From Desulfurispora thermophila DSM 16022 (GTDB lineage Bacteria; Bacillota; Desulfotomaculia; Desulfotomaculales; Desulfurisporaceae): DNA of 64,000 nucleotides. The notes below the pieces were generated by a model. The model was not told the DNA's origin. It ran no database searches and saw only the letters and a program-made list of their open reading frames with translations. The stretch covers positions 115-64,114 of the forward strand of contig NZ_AQWN01000002.1 of the NCBI RefSeq assembly GCF_000376385.1, read 5' to 3'. Position numbers and translations under genes: made by a program. Positions 36,538 to 53,690 of the stretch are shown in pieces. The stretch's first letter is position 1. Each line of letters begins with the position of its first letter.

Positions 36538-36539
36538 TC
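36491..36539. repeat. Inverted repeat at the 3' end of the ADP-forming synthetase gene
   Basis: GAAATGTTC (36491-36499) and GAACATTTC (36531-36539) are perfect complements, extended by a CC/GG pair after one mismatch. The right arm covers the stop codon. No U-run follows on the - strand, so it may be a processed 3' end. Confidence 0.5.
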
Positions 36540-38667
36540 ACAAATCATTCAGGGCTGGCTTTAACACCATGCGGGCGTCCAGTACAAGCGCACCGCTCGG
36601 ATATGCTACGACGGGGTTTAAATCCATCTCCGCTATTTCACCTATTGCCATGGCCAGGTTGGACAACCTGGCAATAATACTTGCCAGGGCGTCAATGTCT
36701 CCTGGCGGTTTTCCCCGGTAACCTGCCAGGAGACGGCTGCCTTTGATCTGCCGGATCATTTGGCCGGCTTCTTCTTGATCAAGCGGGAGCATGCGGAAGG
36801 AGACATCTTTTATTATTTCGGTAAAAATTCCTCCCAGACCGCAGGCTACCACCGGACCAAACTGGTCATCCACAGTCATACCTATGATTAACTCTATTCC
36901 CTCTGCGGCCATGGGTTGCACTGTTACGGCTGCTTCTGGATCCAGAGGAAGGGCTTTTGTGGTCATTTCTCTGTAAGCCTGGCGCAGTGACGTCTCATCG
37001 GCAAGGTTCAGGCGCACACCACCGTAATCCGATTTATGGATAATTCTGGGGGAGCGGATTTTTAATACTACCGGATAACCAAGTTTTTGGGCGCATGCTG
37101 CTGCCTCGTCTGCGCTCCGGGCTGCCAGACAGGGGGTTACCGGAATGCCGAAGGTGGCCAAAACTTCCTTGGCTTCGTCCTCCAACAGCAGGTTCCTGCC
37201 TTCAGAGCGGGCTCTGCCTATTATTTCATTAACTTTTTCCATATCTTTGGGGGCTGTAATTTGGGCGGTAAAATTGGGTTCCTGCTGTACCGCCGGTCTG
37301 CTGTAGTGCACCAGGGCGGCCGCGCCCCAGGCGGCTTCATCGGGTGATATATAGAGCGGTATGCCCGCCTCCTGGAGGGCCTGTCTGTCCCCTGCCACAT
37401 CTCCCACAGTGGAAATATAACAGGCCAGAATGGGCTTGTTGGTTTTTTGTTTGGCCGTAATGAGCTCCCGGGTGGGATTGCGCCAGTTTTTCTGCACGCA
37501 GCTGAAGGTGGCCAGAAGATCAACGTTGGGGTCCTCCAGCACCGCTTCTACCAGCCGGCCGTATGTTTCGGCCGCAAAACCAAGCCCCGCTGCGTCCAGG
37601 GGGTTTTTCAATATGACGGGCGGATTTTCGCCCAGGATACTCTTTATTCTCTGGATGCTCTCCTGGTTGAAGGCAGGAACGTTCACACCCTGTTTGGCCA
37701 GCCGGTCCAGGGCCACAATGCTGGGCCCGGCCGTATAGGTGTACAGGCCGGCCCGGTCTCCGGCGGGGAGCGGGCACAGGGAGAGAGCCTTGCAGGCCGC
37801 CACCAGTTCAGGCACGCTTTCTACCAGCAGTATACCGTACTGCCGGAAAATGTCCTGGAAGAGCCGGTGGGAGCCGGCTATGCTCCCGGTGTGGGTCATG
37901 GCGGCGTAGTTGACGGCATCGGATTGGCCGACTTTGTACACCACGACAGGTTTTTGGCGGGCTACTTTACCCGCTGTCTGGACCAGCCGGCGGGTGTCAT
38001 CCACCCCTTCCAGAAAAACTCCAATCACCTTTGTGCCGGGGTCTGTGAGCAGATATTCCAGGTAGTCGGCAATTTCCAGGACGGTGCGGTTGCCCGCGCC
38101 AATCCACTTGTTTATTCCCAGACCCTCATCCGAGGCCTTTTGGATAATGTACAGGCCTATGCCACCGCTCTGGCTGATAAATGAAACATTGCCCTTCTTC
38201 AGGCGCAATGGGTAAAAGGATGCATCCAGGTCCGCATCGGTGTTGATTATCCCCAGGGTATTGGGGCCAACTACTTTAATTCCGTACTTTTGGGCTATCT
38301 CCACCAACCTTTTTTCCAGGGCGAGCCCTGTCTCGCCAGTTTCCCGGAAACCGCCGGCAACGCAGACAGCTCCTTTTACTCCCAGTTGCCCGCATTGCTC
38401 CACTGCTTCCACAGTGGCATGCTGGTTCAGGGAAACCAGAGCCAGGTCCACCGGGTGCGGTATGTCGCTCAGAGAGCGATAAACCCGCAGGCCCATTATG
38501 GAGTTAAGCTTTGGGTGTACGGGATATACTTCACCTTTAAATCCCCCATAGATGAGACTTTCCAGGAGGTTATATCCTACCTTGTCCGGCGAATCCGTAG
38601 CGCCGATCACAGCCACCCGTTGTGGATAAAACATACCTTGTATTCTCTCTATATCTGGCCTGTGCAT
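36538..38667 (-). CDS. Acyl-CoA synthetase (ADP-forming), fused alpha-beta
   Basis: 709 aa. CoA-binding Rossmann domain (VAVIGATDSPDKVGYNLLES at about 18-37), succinyl-CoA-ligase-like flavodoxin domains with the phospho-accepting His259 (AAMTHTGSIAGS), then an ATP-grasp domain (about 485-709; GYPVVLKIRSPRIIHKSDYGG near its start). It interconverts acyl-CoA, ADP and phosphate with acid, CoA and ATP; acetate or a related short acid is likely but the substrate is not fixed by sequence. Divergent from the AMP-ligase fragment and part of the acyl-CoA cluster. Confidence 0.92.
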   Translation of the reverse strand: MHRPDIERIQGMFYPQRVAVIGATDSPDKVGYNLLESLIYGGFKGEVYPVHPKLNSIMGLRVYRSLSDIPHPVDLALVSLNQHATVEAVEQCGQLGVKGAVCVAGGFRETGETGLALEKRLVEIAQKYGIKVVGPNTLGIINTDADLDASFYPLRLKKGNVSFISQSGGIGLYIIQKASDEGLGINKWIGAGNRTVLEIADYLEYLLTDPGTKVIGVFLEGVDDTRRLVQTAGKVARQKPVVVYKVGQSDAVNYAAMTHTGSIAGSHRLFQDIFRQYGILLVESVPELVAACKALSLCPLPAGDRAGLYTYTAGPSIVALDRLAKQGVNVPAFNQESIQRIKSILGENPPVILKNPLDAAGLGFAAETYGRLVEAVLEDPNVDLLATFSCVQKNWRNPTRELITAKQKTNKPILACYISTVGDVAGDRQALQEAGIPLYISPDEAAWGAAALVHYSRPAVQQEPNFTAQITAPKDMEKVNEIIGRARSEGRNLLLEDEAKEVLATFGIPVTPCLAARSADEAAACAQKLGYPVVLKIRSPRIIHKSDYGGVRLNLADETSLRQAYREMTTKALPLDPEAAVTVQPMAAEGIELIIGMTVDDQFGPVVACGLGGIFTEIIKDVSFRMLPLDQEEAGQMIRQIKGSRLLAGYRGKPPGDIDALASIIARLSNLAMAIGEIAEMDLNPVVAYPSGALVLDARMVLKPALNDL

Positions 38668-38735: not shown

Positions 38736-39068
38736 GTGTTGAATTTTCTCGGGCGGCTGAAGGAAATGATTAAGTGTTCCGGCTATAGTGTTTTCCCGGA
38801 GGAAGTGGAAATGTTGCTGCTGAAACATCCGGCCATACAGCAGGTGGCGGTGGTGGGAGTGCCCGATCCGGTACGCGGGGAAAGTGTCAAGGCCTTTGTG
38901 GTTTTGAGAGAAAATTACAAAGGACAGATTAAACCGGAGGAAGTTATAGAGTGGGCCAAAAACAGTATGGCTGCTTATAAATACCCCCGGCAGGTGGAAT
39001 TCCGGGATGCCTTGCCGGCCACCGGCACGGGCAAGGTGCTGCGCCGTTTGCTGAAAGAGGGGAATTGA
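38736..39068 (+). pseudogene. C-terminal fragment of an AMP-forming acyl-CoA ligase
   Basis: 110 aa that match only the last quarter of an acyl-CoA synthetase: the hinge segment GRLKEMIKCSGYSVFPEEVE and the catalytic-Lys end ATGTGKVLRR. An in-frame TAA at 38700 closes the frame upstream, and no N-terminal domain exists nearby. It parallels the C-terminus of the complete ligase at 40844-42496 (shared AAYKYPRQVEF-like and ATGKV patterns). Probably a deletion remnant, perhaps of an ancestral duplicate; expression as a free C-domain is possible but unproven. Confidence 0.75.
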
Positions 39069-39124: not shown

Positions 39125-39149
39125 GGCGCCCAGAGCAGGGGTGGCGGGG

Positions 39150-40511
39150 ATGGATAATGCTTATTCCAGCATTTTTCACGGTTCCTATGACGGCCTGGTG
39201 CTTTGCGATAGCAATGGTGTGTTGCTTAACCTGAATGAGGGCTACCGGCGCATTACCGGGGCATCCGTCCAGGATGTGCGGGAGGCGCTGGGCCGGCCCA
39301 TGGCAGAACTGGTGCAGGAAGGGGTGGTTGCTCCTTCGGTAACTCTGGAGGTACTGCGCCGCAAGCAGGCGGTTACGCTGTTGCAGCGCATCAAAACCGG
39401 TCGCATTGTGCTGGCAACCGGGAATCCGCTTTATGATGAAATAGGGCGGATAAAATATGTGGTGACCAATGTGCGCAGCAACAGCTGGCCCGGTGTTTTG
39501 GACAGTGGCTTTGGTGTCCGGCAGGGGAAAAAGCTGGAATATATCTGGAGCGCCGGCCAGGGCTTGCCCGTACTGGTGGCGTCCAGTCCCGCCATGGGCA
39601 AAGTGCTGGAACTGGCCCGGCGGGTGGCGGCTTCCAGCCTGCCGGTGATCATCTGCGGCGAGTCGGGTACGGGCAAGGATGTGCTGGCCAGGTTCATCCA
39701 CGCTTGCAGCCTGGTGGCGGACGGGCCTTTTGTGCCGGTAAACTGTGCCGCTGTGCAGGAAAATCTGCTGGAAGCCGAGCTTTTTGGTTACGAGCCGGGG
39801 GCATTTACCGGTGCCAGCAAACGGGGCAAAGAAGGGCTGGTGGAAGTAGCCCACGGCGGTACCCTGTTCCTGGATGAAATAGCCGAAATCCCGGTGCGCA
39901 TGCAGGCCAAGCTGTTACGCTTTTTGCAGGACGGCGAGTTCTACCGGGTGGGCGGCAATCGCCCCCGGCATGTGCAGGTGCGCCTGATCTGTGCCACCAA
40001 TCAGAATTTGTCCGAATTAATCAATAAAGGGTTATTCCGCTCCGACCTGTATTACCGCATGGCCGGTGTCACGCTGAACTTGCCCGCCCTGCGGGAACGG
40101 CGGGAGGACATCTGGCTTTTGGCCGGACATTTTATACGCCAGGTTGGGCTGAAGTATGGGCGGGAAAAGGTATTTGATCCACAGGTGCGGCCGCTTCTGG
40201 AGGCGTATGCCTGGCCGGGTAATGTGCGGGAACTGCAGAATACGGTGGAAAGGGTTTATGTGCTGGCGGCAGGAGAAATAATCGACCCGGATGATGTGCA
40301 GGAGTTGTTGGATGTTCTCCCGCCGCCGGCCGATTTGACTGGCTCCGCCGCTGGAGATATGGTGGGCGACTTTAAAAAGTTGCAGGAGCAGTTTGAGAAG
40401 GAGTTGTTCCAGAAAGCCATGCGGCAGTATGGCAGCATTCGGGGAACGGCCAGAGCGCTGGGGCTGGCTCCAGCTACTGTAATTAGAAAATTGAGAAAGT
40501 ATAAAATATAA
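39150..40511 (+). CDS. Sigma-54-dependent transcriptional activator with PAS domain
   Basis: 453 aa. PAS domain (about 5-110, [20 protein letters not shown]), AAA+ domain with Walker A GESGTGKD, the sigma-54 contact loop [16 protein letters not shown] and the R-finger region, then a Fis-type helix-turn-helix ([21 protein letters not shown]) at the C-terminus. No receiver domain, so the PAS domain probably senses a ligand. ATG 39150 is preferred over GTG 39141 on ribosome-binding-site spacing (AGGGGTGG). A sigma-54 promoter match lies 277 bp after its stop, so it likely controls the ligase-MBL-abfD genes. Confidence 0.94.
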
Positions 40512-40560
40512 TTTTCAAATTAATGATGGATGTTTTATTGAAGAAACAACCTGTTCCAGG

Positions 40561-40592
40561 GAGCTACCGTTCAATACGGTAGCTCTTTTACT
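40561..40592 (+). terminator. Terminator after the sigma-54 activator
   Basis: GAGCTACCGT - TCAAT - ACGGTAGCTC followed by TTTTA; perfect 10-bp stem. Confidence 0.88.
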
Positions 40593-40688: not shown

Positions 40689-40710
40689 CTCAAGTGTTTT
40701 GAGTCTCAAA
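40689..40710. promoter_or_regulatory. Candidate enhancer sites for the sigma-54 activator
   Basis: Perfect palindrome TTTGAG-T-CTCAAA (40698-40710), overlapped on its left by CTCAA-N5-TTGAG (40689-40703). It is about 80-100 bp upstream of the -24 box, a typical distance for a sigma-54 upstream activating sequence. Confidence 0.5.
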
Positions 40711-40787
40711 CAAAAACCTGTTGGTGGTGTTGTTTTTCCAACTGCTCAAATAAAAGAAAAACGGGAGCCCGGGGCTTTCAGGGGCTC

Positions 40788-40802
40788 TGGAACGGTTTTT
40801 GC
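40788..40802 (+). promoter_or_regulatory. Sigma-54 (-24/-12) promoter of the acyl-CoA ligase operon
   Basis: TGGAAC-GGTTT-TTGC, compared with the consensus TGGCAC-N5-TTGC: one mismatch, invariant GG and GC at the right spacing. The expected start near 40814 leaves a 30-base leader to ATG 40844. Confidence 0.72.
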
Positions 40803-40843
40803 GGTTTTGGTAATGCCAAAAGCAAAGGGAAGGGGTGATTTAT

Positions 40844-42496
40844 ATGACAGTACCTTATGAAAGCTTCTGGCCGGCCCGTCTGCCCAGAACGCTTTCCTAT
40901 CCCCGGGTGCCGCTCCACCGCCTGCTGGAAGTAGCGGCCGAGTTTTACCCCGACAAAACGGCCATCAATTATTATGGCTGTCCGCTTAGCTACCGGCAAA
41001 TGCTGGAGCAGGTTTACCAGCTGGCCGGAGCCCTGGCGGCGCGCGGTCTGCAGCAGGGTGACAGGGTGGCTCTTTATATGCAGAACACACCGCACTATGT
41101 GGTGGCTTTTTACGGTGTGTTGCGGGCCGGGGGAGTGGTGGTGCCGATCAACCCCATGCTCACCGGGCATGAGTTGCTGTTCTTGCTGCAGGATAGTGAG
41201 GCTACGGGCTTGATTACTACCAGCGATCTCTATCCGCGGGTGGCTGCTGTGGCGGAGCAGACCGGATTGCGCTTTGTTGTTACAGGCACATACCAAGATT
41301 ATCTGTTGAAGAAGCCTACCCTACCTCTGCCCGATACTGTGCTGGGTGCCTCAGGGTTGGAGAGCGGTGTTCTTACCTGGAGGGATGTACTGCAGGAGAA
41401 TCAATCACCACCTGCGGTGCAGGTAACGCCGGAGCAGTTCTGCTTTTTGCCTTACACTTCGGGTTCAACCGGTGTGCCCAAGGGTTGTATGCACACCCAT
41501 CAGACCGTCATGGCCAATTTGATCAGTTCTTACTACTGGCTGACCAATACGGTTTCCAGTGTGCATCTGGCCACCCTGCCCCTTTTTCATGTCACCGGTC
41601 TGGTGCACAGCATGCTGGCTCCTCTGTATGCCGGCGCGACGGTTGTCCTGCTCACCCGCTGGGACAAACGGGCGGCATTGGAGGCCATAGAAAAATACCG
41701 CTGCACGCACTGGGTGAACATCACCACCATGTTGATTGATTTTTTAACCATTCCGGATCTGAGCGGGCGGGATTTAAGTTCCCTGGTGCTGGTGGGTGGG
41801 GGCGGAGCGCCGCTACCCGAAGCAGTGGGCAGACGCTGGGAAGAGCTCACCGGGCTAAGGTATGTGGAAGGGTACGGTATGACGGAAACAATTTCCCAGA
41901 CCCATTTCAACCCGCCCGACCGGCCCAAGCTGCAGTGTATCGGTATTCCCGACTTCAATGTGGATGCCCGCATTGTGGATGTGGAAAGCGGTGCGGAACT
42001 GCCTCCGGGTATGGCCGGCGAGTTGGTGATCAGCGGACCCGAAGTATTTTTGGGCTACTGGAAGAGGCCGCAGGAAACCAGTGCTTCCTTTATTGAGCTG
42101 AATGGGAAAAAGTTTTTCCGCACCGGTGACATCGCCCGTATGGACGAGGAGGGGTACTTTTATATTGTGGACCGCACCAAGCGCATGATCAATGCCGCCG
42201 GCTACAAAGTCTGGCCGGCCGAGGTGGAAAGCCATCTTTATCAGCACCCGGCCGTTCTGGAAGCCTGTGTGGTGGGGGTGGCGCACCCGGTGCGGGTGGA
42301 GGAAGTGCGGGCCTATGTGGTGCTGCGGGAAGGATACAGGGGTAAAATAGCTCCGGAGGAACTGATTAACTGGTGTAAAGAGCGCATGGCGCCATATAAA
42401 TATCCGCGCCAGGTTGTGTTCGTGGATAGCCTGCCCCGCACTGCCACCGGTAAGGTTAACTGGCGGCAGGTGCAGGAAACAGCCCGGCAGGAGTAG
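40844..42496 (+). CDS. AMP-forming acyl-CoA ligase
   Basis: 550 aa from ATG 40844 behind AAGGGGTGAT. P-loop YTSGSTGVPKG at about 207-217, the A5-like motif GYGMTETISQTHFN, hinge VDRTKRMINAAGYKVWPAEVE and catalytic Lys in RTATGKVNW. Activates a carboxylic acid with ATP and CoA. Neighbouring abfD suggests 4-hydroxybutyrate or a related C4 acid; chain length cannot be read from the sequence. First gene of ligase-MBL-abfD, 10 bp before the MBL gene. Confidence 0.9.
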   Translation: MTVPYESFWPARLPRTLSYPRVPLHRLLEVAAEFYPDKTAINYYGCPLSYRQMLEQVYQLAGALAARGLQQGDRVALYMQNTPHYVVAFYGVLRAGGVVVPINPMLTGHELLFLLQDSEATGLITTSDLYPRVAAVAEQTGLRFVVTGTYQDYLLKKPTLPLPDTVLGASGLESGVLTWRDVLQENQSPPAVQVTPEQFCFLPYTSGSTGVPKGCMHTHQTVMANLISSYYWLTNTVSSVHLATLPLFHVTGLVHSMLAPLYAGATVVLLTRWDKRAALEAIEKYRCTHWVNITTMLIDFLTIPDLSGRDLSSLVLVGGGGAPLPEAVGRRWEELTGLRYVEGYGMTETISQTHFNPPDRPKLQCIGIPDFNVDARIVDVESGAELPPGMAGELVISGPEVFLGYWKRPQETSASFIELNGKKFFRTGDIARMDEEGYFYIVDRTKRMINAAGYKVWPAEVESHLYQHPAVLEACVVGVAHPVRVEEVRAYVVLREGYRGKIAPEELINWCKERMAPYKYPRQVVFVDSLPRTATGKVNWRQVQETARQE

Positions 42497-42506
42497 GAGG
42501 TGTGCT

Positions 42507-43301
42507 ATGTACCGGATTATACCATTGCAGGTAGCGGAAATAATGGCCCCGCTGGGTGTGGTGGCCATGTTTGGCGATATGCAAAAGCTGCTGGTGGCGC
42601 CCGTGTTTGTTTTTTACCTGGAGGGTGGAGACAAGAAAATACTGGTGGATGCTGGAGTCAACGCTCCCGACAGCAGTGGGACGGTGCACGGTTTCCCCAT
42701 CATGGGCGGCGGAGAACAGGGGCTGCGCCAGGCTCTGGCCCAAGTGGGGGTGCAGCCCGAAGAAGTTGATTTTTTAATTCTCACCCATTTGCACTTTGAC
42801 CATTGTGCTATGTTGCCGCTGTTCCGGCGGGCGCGAATTGTGGTGCAGGAAAAGGAATGGCGGACGGCGCACAATCCGGTGCCCATTGCCCGGGCGGTGT
42901 ACGAGCGTGAACTGTTTGCGACGCTGGAACGGATGAATCTGGTGCTGGTTAATGGGGACTGCGAAATAGCACCGGGAGTGAAGGTTTTATTATTACCGGG
43001 GCATACCCAGGGCATGCAGGGTGTGGCGGTGGACACCGGACAAGGCAGGTTTGTCCTGGCCGGAGATTTGCTCTACAGCTATTACAACCTGGATCCGTCC
43101 TTGTCGTCATTTAAAGACCTGAGGGGGAACGAAATAGCTGTACTGCCCCGTCCCGATTTGCCCTTTTTGCCTCCGGCCGTGCATATAGACTTGAGTGACT
43201 GGTATGCCAGTTGCTGGAAGGCGGTGGCGCAGGCCGGTGGACGGGAAAGGGTTATCCCCGGTCACGATCCGGCGGTGGCGGGAAAGGTTTTTGGTGAGTA
43301 A
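42507..43301 (+). CDS. MBL-fold hydrolase (lactonase-like)
   Basis: 264 aa from ATG 42507 after GGAGGTGTGCT. Zinc motif HLHFDH at 94-99, then PGHTQGMQG, a bridging Asp in LAGDLLYS and a late PGHDP His, the pattern of the N-acyl-homoserine-lactonase-like branch. In this operon it might hydrolyse a lactone (such as gamma-butyrolactone to 4-hydroxybutyrate) or a thioester. This role is inferred from context only. Confidence 0.85.
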   Translation: MYRIIPLQVAEIMAPLGVVAMFGDMQKLLVAPVFVFYLEGGDKKILVDAGVNAPDSSGTVHGFPIMGGGEQGLRQALAQVGVQPEEVDFLILTHLHFDHCAMLPLFRRARIVVQEKEWRTAHNPVPIARAVYERELFATLERMNLVLVNGDCEIAPGVKVLLLPGHTQGMQGVAVDTGQGRFVLAGDLLYSYYNLDPSLSSFKDLRGNEIAVLPRPDLPFLPPAVHIDLSDWYASCWKAVAQAGGRERVIPGHDPAVAGKVFGE

Positions 43302-43348: not shown

Positions 43349-44851
43349 ATGGCTCTGGTTAGTGGCAAAGATTACATGGAGCGCCTGGCTAAAATGAAGC
43401 CCAATGTTTATCTCAATGGTCGGGCAATTGACCGCACGGACGAGCGGCTGCGGGGCGGGATCAACATCATTAAGGAGACCTTTGAACTGGCGGCCCGGCC
43501 CGAGTGGCAGGAATTGTGCGTGGTGGAATCCCATCTGGGAGTGGGCAAAATCAACCGGTTCTGTCACATTCACCAGAGCAAGGAGGATTTGCTTCAGAAA
43601 CAAAAAATGACCCGCCTGCTCTGCCAGCGGGTGGGCGGTTGTATTCAGCGCTGCATGGGCATTGATGCACTGAATGCCCTTTCAGTGGTAACAAAGGAGA
43701 TGGACGACATACTGGGTACGGTTTACCACCAGCGCTTTCTGGACTACCTGAAATATTTTCAGAGCAACGACCTGGTCGGGTGCTGTGCCCAGACCGATGT
43801 GAAGGGCGACCGTGGCAAACGGCCCCATCAACAAACCGACCCCGACCTTTACCTGCGCATTGTGGAAGAGCGGGAGGACGGCATAGTCGTCCGGGGAGCC
43901 AAAGCGCACAATACCGCCGCTCCCTATGTGGACGAGATCATAGTCTTGCCTACCCGGGCCATGACACCGCAGGACGGCGCCTACGCTGTGGCCTTCGCCA
44001 TTCCGGCCGACTGGCCGGGAGTGAAGCTGGTGATCCGGCCGGCCCACCCCAGAAAGCGGGTGCACCTGGAGGCGCCCATCTTCCAGTTTGGCGACGCCGA
44101 GTCCTTTACCATTTTTGATGATGTCTTTGTGCCCAAAGAGCGGGTCTTTATGAAAGGTGAGCATATGTTTGCCGGATTTTTGGCCCTCATGTTCGCCCAT
44201 TTCCACCGCCATTCCTACACGGGTTGCAAGCCGGCCATTTCGGATATTATCGCCAGCGCCGCCGCCCTGGTCACCGAGTACAACGGCATTGAAAAGCTGC
44301 CCCATGTGCAGGAAAAAATCTCCCACATAATTGGTACGGCCGAATTGGTTTATGCCGCGGGTATTGCCAGTGCCGAGTATTCCGAGAAGTTTGCCTCGGG
44401 TACCCAGGTGCCCGATGAAATTTTCACCAATGTGGGCCGGCGCCATGCCGGACAGAATGTCTACCACGAGTATGAGATTCTGGCTGACCTGGCCGGCGGC
44501 CTGTGCGCCACCCTGCCCTTTGAAGAGGACTTTTTCAGTGAGGAAAACGGCAGCCTCCTGCATAAATACATCCAGCGCGTGGCCGGTGTGGCGGTGGAGG
44601 ATGTGCACCGCTGCTACCGCCTGCTGGAGCACATGATCGTGGGCGACATGGCCGGTGTCATGCAGGTGGCTGGCATTCACGGCGGCGGTTCACCACATAT
44701 GGAGACCGTGACCATGATGCAGCGCTATCCCATGGCGGATCTGAAGAAGATAGCCAAATATCTGGCGGGTATTGATACCAATTTTGTTTGTTTTCACCGG
44801 GAAACCGTGACGCCCAAAAAGCTGCTGGAAAAATACAAGCCGGGGCGGTAG
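43349..44851 (+). CDS. abfD: 4-Hydroxybutyryl-CoA dehydratase / vinylacetyl-CoA delta-isomerase
   Basis: 500 aa from ATG 43349 with AGGAGGG upstream. FAD and [4Fe-4S] enzyme of the HpaB-like fold, converting 4-hydroxybutyryl-CoA to crotonyl-CoA. The four cluster ligands known from Clostridium aminobutyricum (Cys99, Cys103, His292, Cys299) have exact counterparts: Cys98 and Cys102 in GGCIQRCMG, and His286 and Cys293 in HFHRHSYTGC, with spacing conserved. That separates it from flavin hydroxylases of the same family. Follows the MBL gene by 47 bp; ends before a strong terminator. Such enzymes are oxygen-sensitive, fitting an anaerobe. Confidence 0.94.
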   Translation: MALVSGKDYMERLAKMKPNVYLNGRAIDRTDERLRGGINIIKETFELAARPEWQELCVVESHLGVGKINRFCHIHQSKEDLLQKQKMTRLLCQRVGGCIQRCMGIDALNALSVVTKEMDDILGTVYHQRFLDYLKYFQSNDLVGCCAQTDVKGDRGKRPHQQTDPDLYLRIVEEREDGIVVRGAKAHNTAAPYVDEIIVLPTRAMTPQDGAYAVAFAIPADWPGVKLVIRPAHPRKRVHLEAPIFQFGDAESFTIFDDVFVPKERVFMKGEHMFAGFLALMFAHFHRHSYTGCKPAISDIIASAAALVTEYNGIEKLPHVQEKISHIIGTAELVYAAGIASAEYSEKFASGTQVPDEIFTNVGRRHAGQNVYHEYEILADLAGGLCATLPFEEDFFSEENGSLLHKYIQRVAGVAVEDVHRCYRLLEHMIVGDMAGVMQVAGIHGGGSPHMETVTMMQRYPMADLKKIAKYLAGIDTNFVCFHRETVTPKKLLEKYKPGR

Positions 44852-44910: not shown

Positions 44911-44948
44911 TAAAAGCCAGCATCTTCAACCTAAAGATGCTGGCTTTT
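44911..44948. terminator. Bidirectional terminator, abfD / tRNA operon
   Basis: TAAAAGCCAGCATCTT - CAACCT - AAGATGCTGGCTTTTTA; 12-bp or longer stem with runs on both strands, between converging units. Confidence 0.92.
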
Positions 44949-44951
44949 TAC

Positions 44952-48334: not shown

Positions 48335-49690
48335 TCAGTTCAAACTGATGCCGTGCTTCTGGCTGCGGTACAGAAGGGCGGAACGGGTAATGCCCAGCAG
48401 TTGGGCAGCCCTGGTCTGGTTGCCGCCGCTTTTCTCCAGGGCTTTGATAATCAGTTCTTTTTCCAGTTCCTCCAACGATATGCCGCCGTCCGGGATGGTG
48501 AGCAAATTTTGCCGGGTAGCCTGCTCCGAGGTGACCAGCAGTTCCTTGGGCAGATCAGCCGGGGTGATTTCCTGGCCCTGACAGATAATTACCGCCCGTT
48601 CAATAACATTTTGCAGTTCCCGGATGTTGCCGGGCCAGTGGTACCTGGTCATCAGTTGCATGGCGGCGGGCGAGATGCGGCTGATTTTGCCATTGGGGGC
48701 AAATTTGCTCAAGAAATGGTTGGCCAGCAGGGGAATATCTTCCTTCCTGTCTCGCAAAGCGGGCATGTTAATCTGAATCACATTGAGCCGGTAATACAAA
48801 TCTTCGCGAAACTGGCCCTTTTCCATCGCCTCTTTTAGGTTGCGGTTGGTGGCGGCAATTACGCGCACATCCACTTTTAAGGTTTCCGTCCCGCCCACCC
48901 TTTCAAATGTTTTTTCCTGGAGTACCCGCAACAGTTTGGCCTGCATGTTCAAAGGCATTTCGGCAATCTCATCCAGAAACAAGGTTCCGTTGTGGGCCAG
49001 TTCAAAACGGCCCGGTTTGCGGTGCAGGGCACCGGTAAAGGCTCCTTTTTCATGGCCAAAAAGTTCGCTTTCCAGCAAATTATCGGGAATAGCGGCGCAG
49101 TTCACCGGTACAAAGGGACCATCCCGGCGCGGGCTGTGCTGGTGAATGGTCACGGCCGCCACTTCCTTGCCGGTGCCGCTTTCGCCGGTAATCAATACAG
49201 TGGCGTTGCTCTGGGCCACTTTATCGATCAGTTTGAGCACTTCCTGCATGGCCGGGCTCTGTCCGATCAACTGGCTGTATTTTTTTTGCAGTTCGGAGCG
49301 TAAAAAGTCCACCTCGCTGGCCAGTTGGGATACCTGCAGGTTTTGCTTGATCACCAGCTTGAGCTCATCCAAATCGAACGGTTTGGTCAGGTAATCAGAT
49401 GCCCCCAGTTTCATGGCTTCAATGGCGGTTTCAATGCTGCCGTGGGCCGTGAGCATGACCACCGGCAGGCGGGGATTCATCTGGCGCGCCTTTTTCAATA
49501 CTTCCAGTCCGTCCATTTCGGGCATCTTCAGATCCAGAATAACCAGGGTGGGGGCTTGCTCTTTGATCATTTCCAGCCCCTGGTGCACCCGGGTGGTGCT
49601 GATGGCCTGATAGCCTTCCTGGCGCATGGCTCTTTCCAGCGCCCAGCACATGTGCTCTTCGTCATCAATGATCAGTATTTTGGGGATCAA
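48335..49690 (-). CDS. NtrC-family response regulator
   Basis: 451 aa. Receiver domain with phospho-acceptor Asp53 (LVILDLKMPEMDG) and Lys in YLTKPFD, AAA+ domain with GESGTGKE, GAFTGA and [10 protein letters not shown], and a C-terminal Fis-type helix-turn-helix (GGNQTRAAQLLGITRSALLYR). Activates sigma-54 promoters on phosphorylation by the kinase encoded just upstream, with which it overlaps by 4 bases. Targets are not known; the 53675 promoter match is one candidate. Confidence 0.95.
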   Translation of the reverse strand: MIPKILIIDDEEHMCWALERAMRQEGYQAISTTRVHQGLEMIKEQAPTLVILDLKMPEMDGLEVLKKARQMNPRLPVVMLTAHGSIETAIEAMKLGASDYLTKPFDLDELKLVIKQNLQVSQLASEVDFLRSELQKKYSQLIGQSPAMQEVLKLIDKVAQSNATVLITGESGTGKEVAAVTIHQHSPRRDGPFVPVNCAAIPDNLLESELFGHEKGAFTGALHRKPGRFELAHNGTLFLDEIAEMPLNMQAKLLRVLQEKTFERVGGTETLKVDVRVIAATNRNLKEAMEKGQFREDLYYRLNVIQINMPALRDRKEDIPLLANHFLSKFAPNGKISRISPAAMQLMTRYHWPGNIRELQNVIERAVIICQGQEITPADLPKELLVTSEQATRQNLLTIPDGGISLEELEKELIIKALEKSGGNQTRAAQLLGITRSALLYRSQKHGISLN

Positions 49691-53674: not shown

Positions 53675-53690
53675 TGGCACAAGATATGCA
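53675..53690 (+). promoter_or_regulatory. Sigma-54-like promoter of the CBS-domain gene
   Basis: TGGCAC-AAGAT-ATGCA against TGGCAC-N5-TTGCA: perfect -24, one mismatch in -12, correct spacing. The expected start near 53702 is 36 bases before ATG 53738. Confidence 0.5.

What the first reader, a model, noticed from the sequence alone, without database searches (positions are those of the whole stretch)
40788..40802. Sigma-54 promoter match directly after a sigma-54 activator gene
TGGAAC-GGTTT-TTGC has the required GG/GC spacing and lies 30-40 bp before the ligase start, with the activator gene just upstream. It ties regulator and operon together.
Basis: seen in the sequence. Interest (0 to 1): 0.62.

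Follow-up and report, generated by a model that had tools for sequence, protein, structure and literature searches.

The report
Sigma-54 promoter of a ligase–dehydratase operon
A bacterial gene switch: a regulator gene is followed by its two likely binding sites and a sigma-54 promoter that probably turns on the next three-gene operon, a well-known kind of arrangement found here in a new pathway.

Summary
TGGAACGGTTTTTGC lies at 40788-40802 (+), with GG-N10-GC spacing, 277 nt after the stop of a complete PAS/AAA+/HTH sigma-54 activator (GAFTGA present) and 42 nt before the ATG of an AMP-forming CoA ligase. In the whole window such a match is expected about once by chance, so the motif alone proves little.

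The context makes it convincing. (1) The genome has rpoN, and 7 of 21 activator genes are followed within 450 nt by a sense-strand sigma-54 site, against 7 of 131 other genes (p = 7e-4). (2) A relative (G036) keeps the same operon and activator, with TGGCACGGTTTTTGT at the same place. Seven ligase relatives (53-72% identical) with no activator detected directly upstream lack a site. (3) A strong terminator separates activator from operon in both genomes. (4) New here: TGTTT-N8-AAACA, fitting the published TGT-N10-12-ACA class of activator binding sites, occurs at only four places in the 2.8-Mb genome; two are in this gap (40531-40548, 40695-40712).

Most likely the activator binds the pair and opens sigma-54 RNA polymerase at 40788-40803, transcribing ligase, lactonase-like hydrolase and an AbfD-family dehydratase. 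This is a new member of a known kind. Transcription was not tested.

The parts
39150..40511 (+). Sigma-54 activator (bEBP) gene: PAS, AAA+ with GAFTGA, C-terminal Fis/TyrR-type HTH; a GTG start at 39141 is also possible
   Evidence: Pfam PF00158 224 bits, PF18024 HTH_50, PAS; GAFTGA in the translation
40531..40548 (+). Putative enhancer site 2 (UAS), TGTTTTATTGAAGAAACA
   Evidence: One of only two TGTTT-N8-AAACA matches in the window and of four places in the genome
40558..40590 (+). Intrinsic terminator of the activator transcript
   Evidence: 13-bp hairpin, -26.5 kcal/mol, z -6.3, T-rich 3' side; also a hairpin at this place in G036
40695..40712 (+). Putative enhancer site 1 (UAS), TGTTTTGAGTCTCAAACA; centre about 110 nt before the predicted start
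   Evidence: overlaps AAGTGTTTTGA, which also occurs in the G036 gap
40788..40803 (+). Sigma-54 -24/-12 promoter, TGGAACGGTTTTTGCG; predicted +1 near 40814
40828..40836 (+). Shine-Dalgarno-like sequence before the ligase
   Evidence: Read in the sequence
40844..42496 (+). AMP-forming acyl-CoA ligase, first gene of the operon
   Evidence: NF006181 (PRK08314) 818 bits, above its cut-off of 705; 66% identical to G036
42507..43301 (+). Metallo-beta-lactamase-fold hydrolase, lactonase-like
   Evidence: PF00753; best solved relatives are AiiA-type lactonases
43349..44851 (+). 4-hydroxybutyryl-CoA dehydratase (AbfD)-family protein
   Evidence: PF11794/PF03241; 1u8v 360 bits; all four Fe-S ligand positions kept
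44914..44951 (.). Terminator-like hairpin at the operon's end, before convergent tRNA genes
   Evidence: AAAGCCAGCATCTT-CAACCT-AAAGATGCTGGCTTTTT read in the sequence; tRNAs

Best explanation
The site is the -24/-12 promoter of the operon ligase - lactonase-like hydrolase - AbfD-family dehydratase. The activator gene upstream is transcribed separately and its transcript ends at the terminator at 40558-40590. The PAS-domain activator senses an unknown signal, binds the two TGTTT-N8-AAACA sites at 40531-40548 and 40695-40712, contacts sigma-54 RNA polymerase at 40788-40803 by DNA looping, and uses ATP hydrolysis through its AAA+/GAFTGA module to open the promoter, giving a transcript from about 40814. 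Shown by sequence: the elements, their order, rarity, partial conservation and the genome-wide pattern. Inferred: binding, looping, start site, signal and substrate.
For: Exact -24/-12 spacing and position. rpoN is present. The activator has PF00158, an HTH and GAFTGA. G036 keeps activator, ligase, hydrolase and dehydratase in the same order with TGGCACGGTTTTTGT about 60 nt before the ligase. Seven ligase relatives (53-72% identical) with no activator detected directly upstream have no site scoring 10 or more within 700 nt (L104-L109, L111). 7 of 21 activators have a site scoring 14 or more within 450 nt downstream in sense, 0 of 21 in antisense, 7 of 131 other genes, p = 7e-4. TGTTT-N8-AAACA: two copies in the gap, none elsewhere in the window (expected 0.06), four places in the genome; it fits the published TGT-N10-12-ACA class (PMC6615313). 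Strong terminator between activator and operon. No sigma-70-like site in the gap itself; the only one ends at 40512, before the terminator.
Against: The site departs from the consensus (TGGAAC for TGGCAC, G after TTGC). G036 has TTGT in place of TTGC, and its 13/16 identity to the window site is not significant by itself (95 of 200 simulated pairs reach it). TGTTT-N8-AAACA is not found in the G036 gap. The TT/AA extension of the literature motif was read from this gap, so the rarity figure is partly post hoc. Only one other species with the full arrangement was found. No expression data.
Confidence: 0.88

Rival explanations
1. The motif is a chance match, and the operon is expressed from an undetected sigma-A promoter or by read-through from the activator gene.
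For: Such a match is expected about once per 64 kb; the consensus match is imperfect.
Against: Position, relative, genome-wide pattern and the paired sites. Read-through is opposed by a -26.5 kcal/mol terminator. No sigma-70-like site in the gap.
Confidence: 0.07
2. The stretch GGGAGCCC...GGGGCTCTGGAACGGTTTTT (40763-40799) is a terminator or attenuator, and TGGAACGGTTTTTGC is only its tail.
For: The terminator scan lists this stretch.
Against: Folding energy is no better than in shuffles (z -0.57). The hairpin is not kept in G036, whose stretch also folds no better than shuffles (z -0.69), while TGGNACGGTTTTTG is.
Confidence: 0.03
3. The promoter is real but is activated by another of the genome's about 20 activators, not by its neighbour.
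For: Published work reports 38 of 263 activators not clustered with their targets (PMC6615313); the window also encodes a response-regulator activator at 48335-49690.
Against: In G036 the site occurs with the same activator; ligase relatives with no activator detected directly upstream lack a site; the paired sites are almost unique to this gap.
Confidence: 0.06

Closest known systems
Activator-adjacent sigma-54 operons of Clostridia (Nie et al. 2019, PMC6615313)
   Same: Activator gene beside its target operon, TGT-N10-12-ACA binding sites, often several, upstream of a -24/-12 promoter; catabolic or fermentation target genes.
   Different: No group in the paper's Table 1 lists a ligase-hydrolase-dehydratase operon. 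One site here lies 75 bp before the promoter, nearer than the usual 100-250 bp.
XanR - abfD regulon of Clostridium (same paper, Table 1)
   Same: A sigma-54 activator predicted to control an operon with abfD.
   Different: Different partner genes (nifU-hyp-ach-golB), and XanR belongs to the groups with distinct binding motifs, not TGT-N-ACA. Orthology to XanR was not tested.
PrdR (NF041552), best-scoring activator model
   Same: PAS - AAA+ - HTH layout; 330 bits over residues 4-452.
   Different: Far below the model's cut-off of 795 bits; the target operon is different.

Membership tests
Sigma-54 (-24/-12) promoter | GG and GC elements with 10 bases between them | tested here: met
   G40789 G40790 N10 G40801 C40802
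Sigma-54 (-24/-12) promoter | Close to TGGCAC[G/T]N4TTGC[A/T] beyond GG/GC | tested here: met
   Two mismatches to TGGCACGNNNNTTGCW
Sigma-54 (-24/-12) promoter | RpoN encoded in the genome | tested here: met
   PF04552 at G000:C5:34719-35201, 207 bits
Sigma-54 (-24/-12) promoter | Upstream activator binding sites | tested here: met
   Two TGTTT-N8-AAACA sites in the gap; binding not shown
Sigma-54 (-24/-12) promoter | rpoN- and activator-dependent transcription from about 12 nt after GC | not testable with these tools
   Needs 5'-end mapping and mutants
Sigma-54 activator (bEBP) | AAA+ domain with GAFTGA loop and a DNA-binding HTH | tested here: met
   PF00158, PF18024/PF02954, GAFTGA
4-hydroxybutyryl-CoA dehydratase (AbfD) | Fe-S ligands C99, C103, H292, C299 of 1u8v | tested here: met
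   C98, C102, H286, C293 in the alignment
4-hydroxybutyryl-CoA dehydratase (AbfD) | E455 of 1u8v (recalled as an active-site residue) | tested here: not met
   Aligned residue is A441, also A in G036; so it is filed only as AbfD-family

The most novel reading that the evidence does not exclude
The operon encodes an undescribed anaerobic route for a lactone or hydroxy acid (lactonase-like hydrolase, AMP-forming ligase, AbfD-family dehydratase lacking the usual E455), switched on by a dedicated activator that senses the substrate or its CoA ester.
Probability: 0.3. Interest if true: 0.45.

Novelty: new member of a known kind. Interest (0 to 1): 0.27.

Why it matters
It gives a complete, testable regulatory unit (activator, two binding sites, terminator, promoter, three-gene operon) in a lineage with about 20 sigma-54 activators, and shows that the activator-then-promoter arrangement recurs in this genome. 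The activator could serve as a reporter for finding the substrate of an uncharacterised dehydratase pathway. The regulatory principle itself is well known.

Tried and rejected
Window-wide significance of the motif: rejected, expected 1.1. Raw identity of the two promoters as proof of conservation: rejected, 13/16 arises in 95 of 200 simulated pairs. Terminator reading of the motif: folding not significant. Generic dyad scan for the activator site found nothing; the literature motif did. TGTTT-N8-AAACA in G036: not found. More species with the operon: the genome-contig scan with the dehydratase gave one distant locus, and the phylum search with the activator (398 sampled genomes) gave no clear new ortholog. 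The two other TGTTT-N8-AAACA places in the genome have no strong sigma-54 site nearby.

Full report
Observation. The motif TGGAACGGTTTTTGC is at 40788-40802 on the + strand, with GG-N10-GC spacing. The upstream gene ends at 40511 and encodes a PAS/AAA+/HTH protein with the GAFTGA loop that contacts sigma-54. The downstream ligase starts at ATG 40844 (or GTG 40835). Over the whole window such a match is expected 1.1 times by chance, and two-mismatch matches to TGGCACGNNNNTTGCW are not enriched (15 found, 16 expected). The case must therefore rest on context.

Genome context. The genome (2.82 Mb, 19 contigs) has one rpoN and 25 PF00158 hits, about 20 of them full activators. GG-N10-GC matches (TGGNAN6TTGC) number 210, against 124 with a spacer one base shorter and 42 for the reversed pattern. 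With an approximate weight matrix of my own (weights set from general knowledge of the consensus, not fitted), 7 of 21 activators have a site scoring 14 or more within 450 nt downstream on the sense strand, 0 of 21 on the antisense strand, and 7 of 131 other genes do (Fisher p = 7e-4). The window's site is one of the seven; the others seen include genes for a fumarase-family protein, a CoA-transferase-family protein and an iron alcohol dehydrogenase.

Comparison with relatives. In the same order, G036 has the same four genes in the same order: activator 55%, ligase 66%, hydrolase 66%, dehydratase 76% identical. Its gap contains TGGCACGGTTTTTGT, whose -12 base lies 61 nt before the ligase start. 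Seven ligase relatives at 53-72% identity with no activator detected directly upstream have no site scoring 10 or more within 700 nt upstream. The raw similarity of the two promoters is not significant on its own, and G036 has TTGT instead of TTGC.

Anatomy of the gap. A strong terminator follows the activator gene (40558-40590, -26.5 kcal/mol, z -6.3); G036 also has a strong hairpin there (z -3.1). So the operon needs its own promoter, and no sigma-70-like site was found in the gap beyond one that ends at 40512, before the terminator. Published work on Clostridiales describes TGT-N10-12-ACA activator sites, often several per promoter, mostly 100-250 bp upstream, with most targets beside the activator gene (PMC6615313). 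The gap holds two such sites, both TGTTT-N8-AAACA, at 40531-40548 and 40695-40712; the window has no other (expected 0.06), and the genome has only two more places. The extension from TGT/ACA to TGTTT/AAACA was read from this gap, so the rarity is partly post hoc, but the second copy was not used to define it. The site is absent from the G036 gap, where only AAGTGTTTTGA is shared (26 of 1000 simulated pairs share as much).

Operon. Ligase, hydrolase and dehydratase are separated by 10 and 47 nt and end before a terminator-like hairpin at about 44914-44951, which faces convergent tRNA genes. The hydrolase is nearest to AiiA-type lactonases among solved structures. The dehydratase is nearest to 4-hydroxybutyryl-CoA dehydratase 1u8v and keeps all four Fe-S ligand positions, Y296 and K300, but has Ala where 1u8v has Glu455. 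A route lactone -> hydroxy acid -> CoA ester -> enoyl-CoA is a reasonable guess, not shown. In Clostridium another sigma-54 activator, XanR, is predicted to control an abfD operon.

Verdict. It is a new member of a well-known kind. Transcription, binding and substrate remain untested.

Noticed in passing
38736-39068 (+): A 110-aa ORF that is only the C-terminal domain of an AMP-forming ligase, 58% identical to the end of the operon's ligase; probably a remnant of a second ligase copy upstream of the activator.
   Followed up: partly
43349-44851 (+): AbfD-family dehydratase keeps the Fe-S ligands but has Ala441 where 1u8v has Glu455; the same in G036, so a subfamily possibly acting on another substrate.
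   Followed up: partly
36538-38667 (-): An ADP-forming acyl-CoA synthetase, related to 4-hydroxybutyrate--CoA ligase models but below their cut-offs, lies divergently upstream of the ligase remnant.
   Followed up: no
L068, L070, L060, L059, L061, L062 (G000 stretches around activator genes): Six further activator genes of this genome are followed by strong sigma-54 sites in sense orientation: a ready list of predicted promoters.
   Followed up: partly
L088, L092, L093, L095, L096: AbfD-family dehydratase genes lie within a few kb of sigma-54 activator genes in several genomes of the order; sigma-54 control of this enzyme family may be widespread.
   Followed up: no
18682, 28274, 53675 (+) and 58699 (-): Other high-scoring sigma-54-like sites in the window; the one at 53675 begins inside a predicted ORF. 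None was examined further.
   Followed up: no
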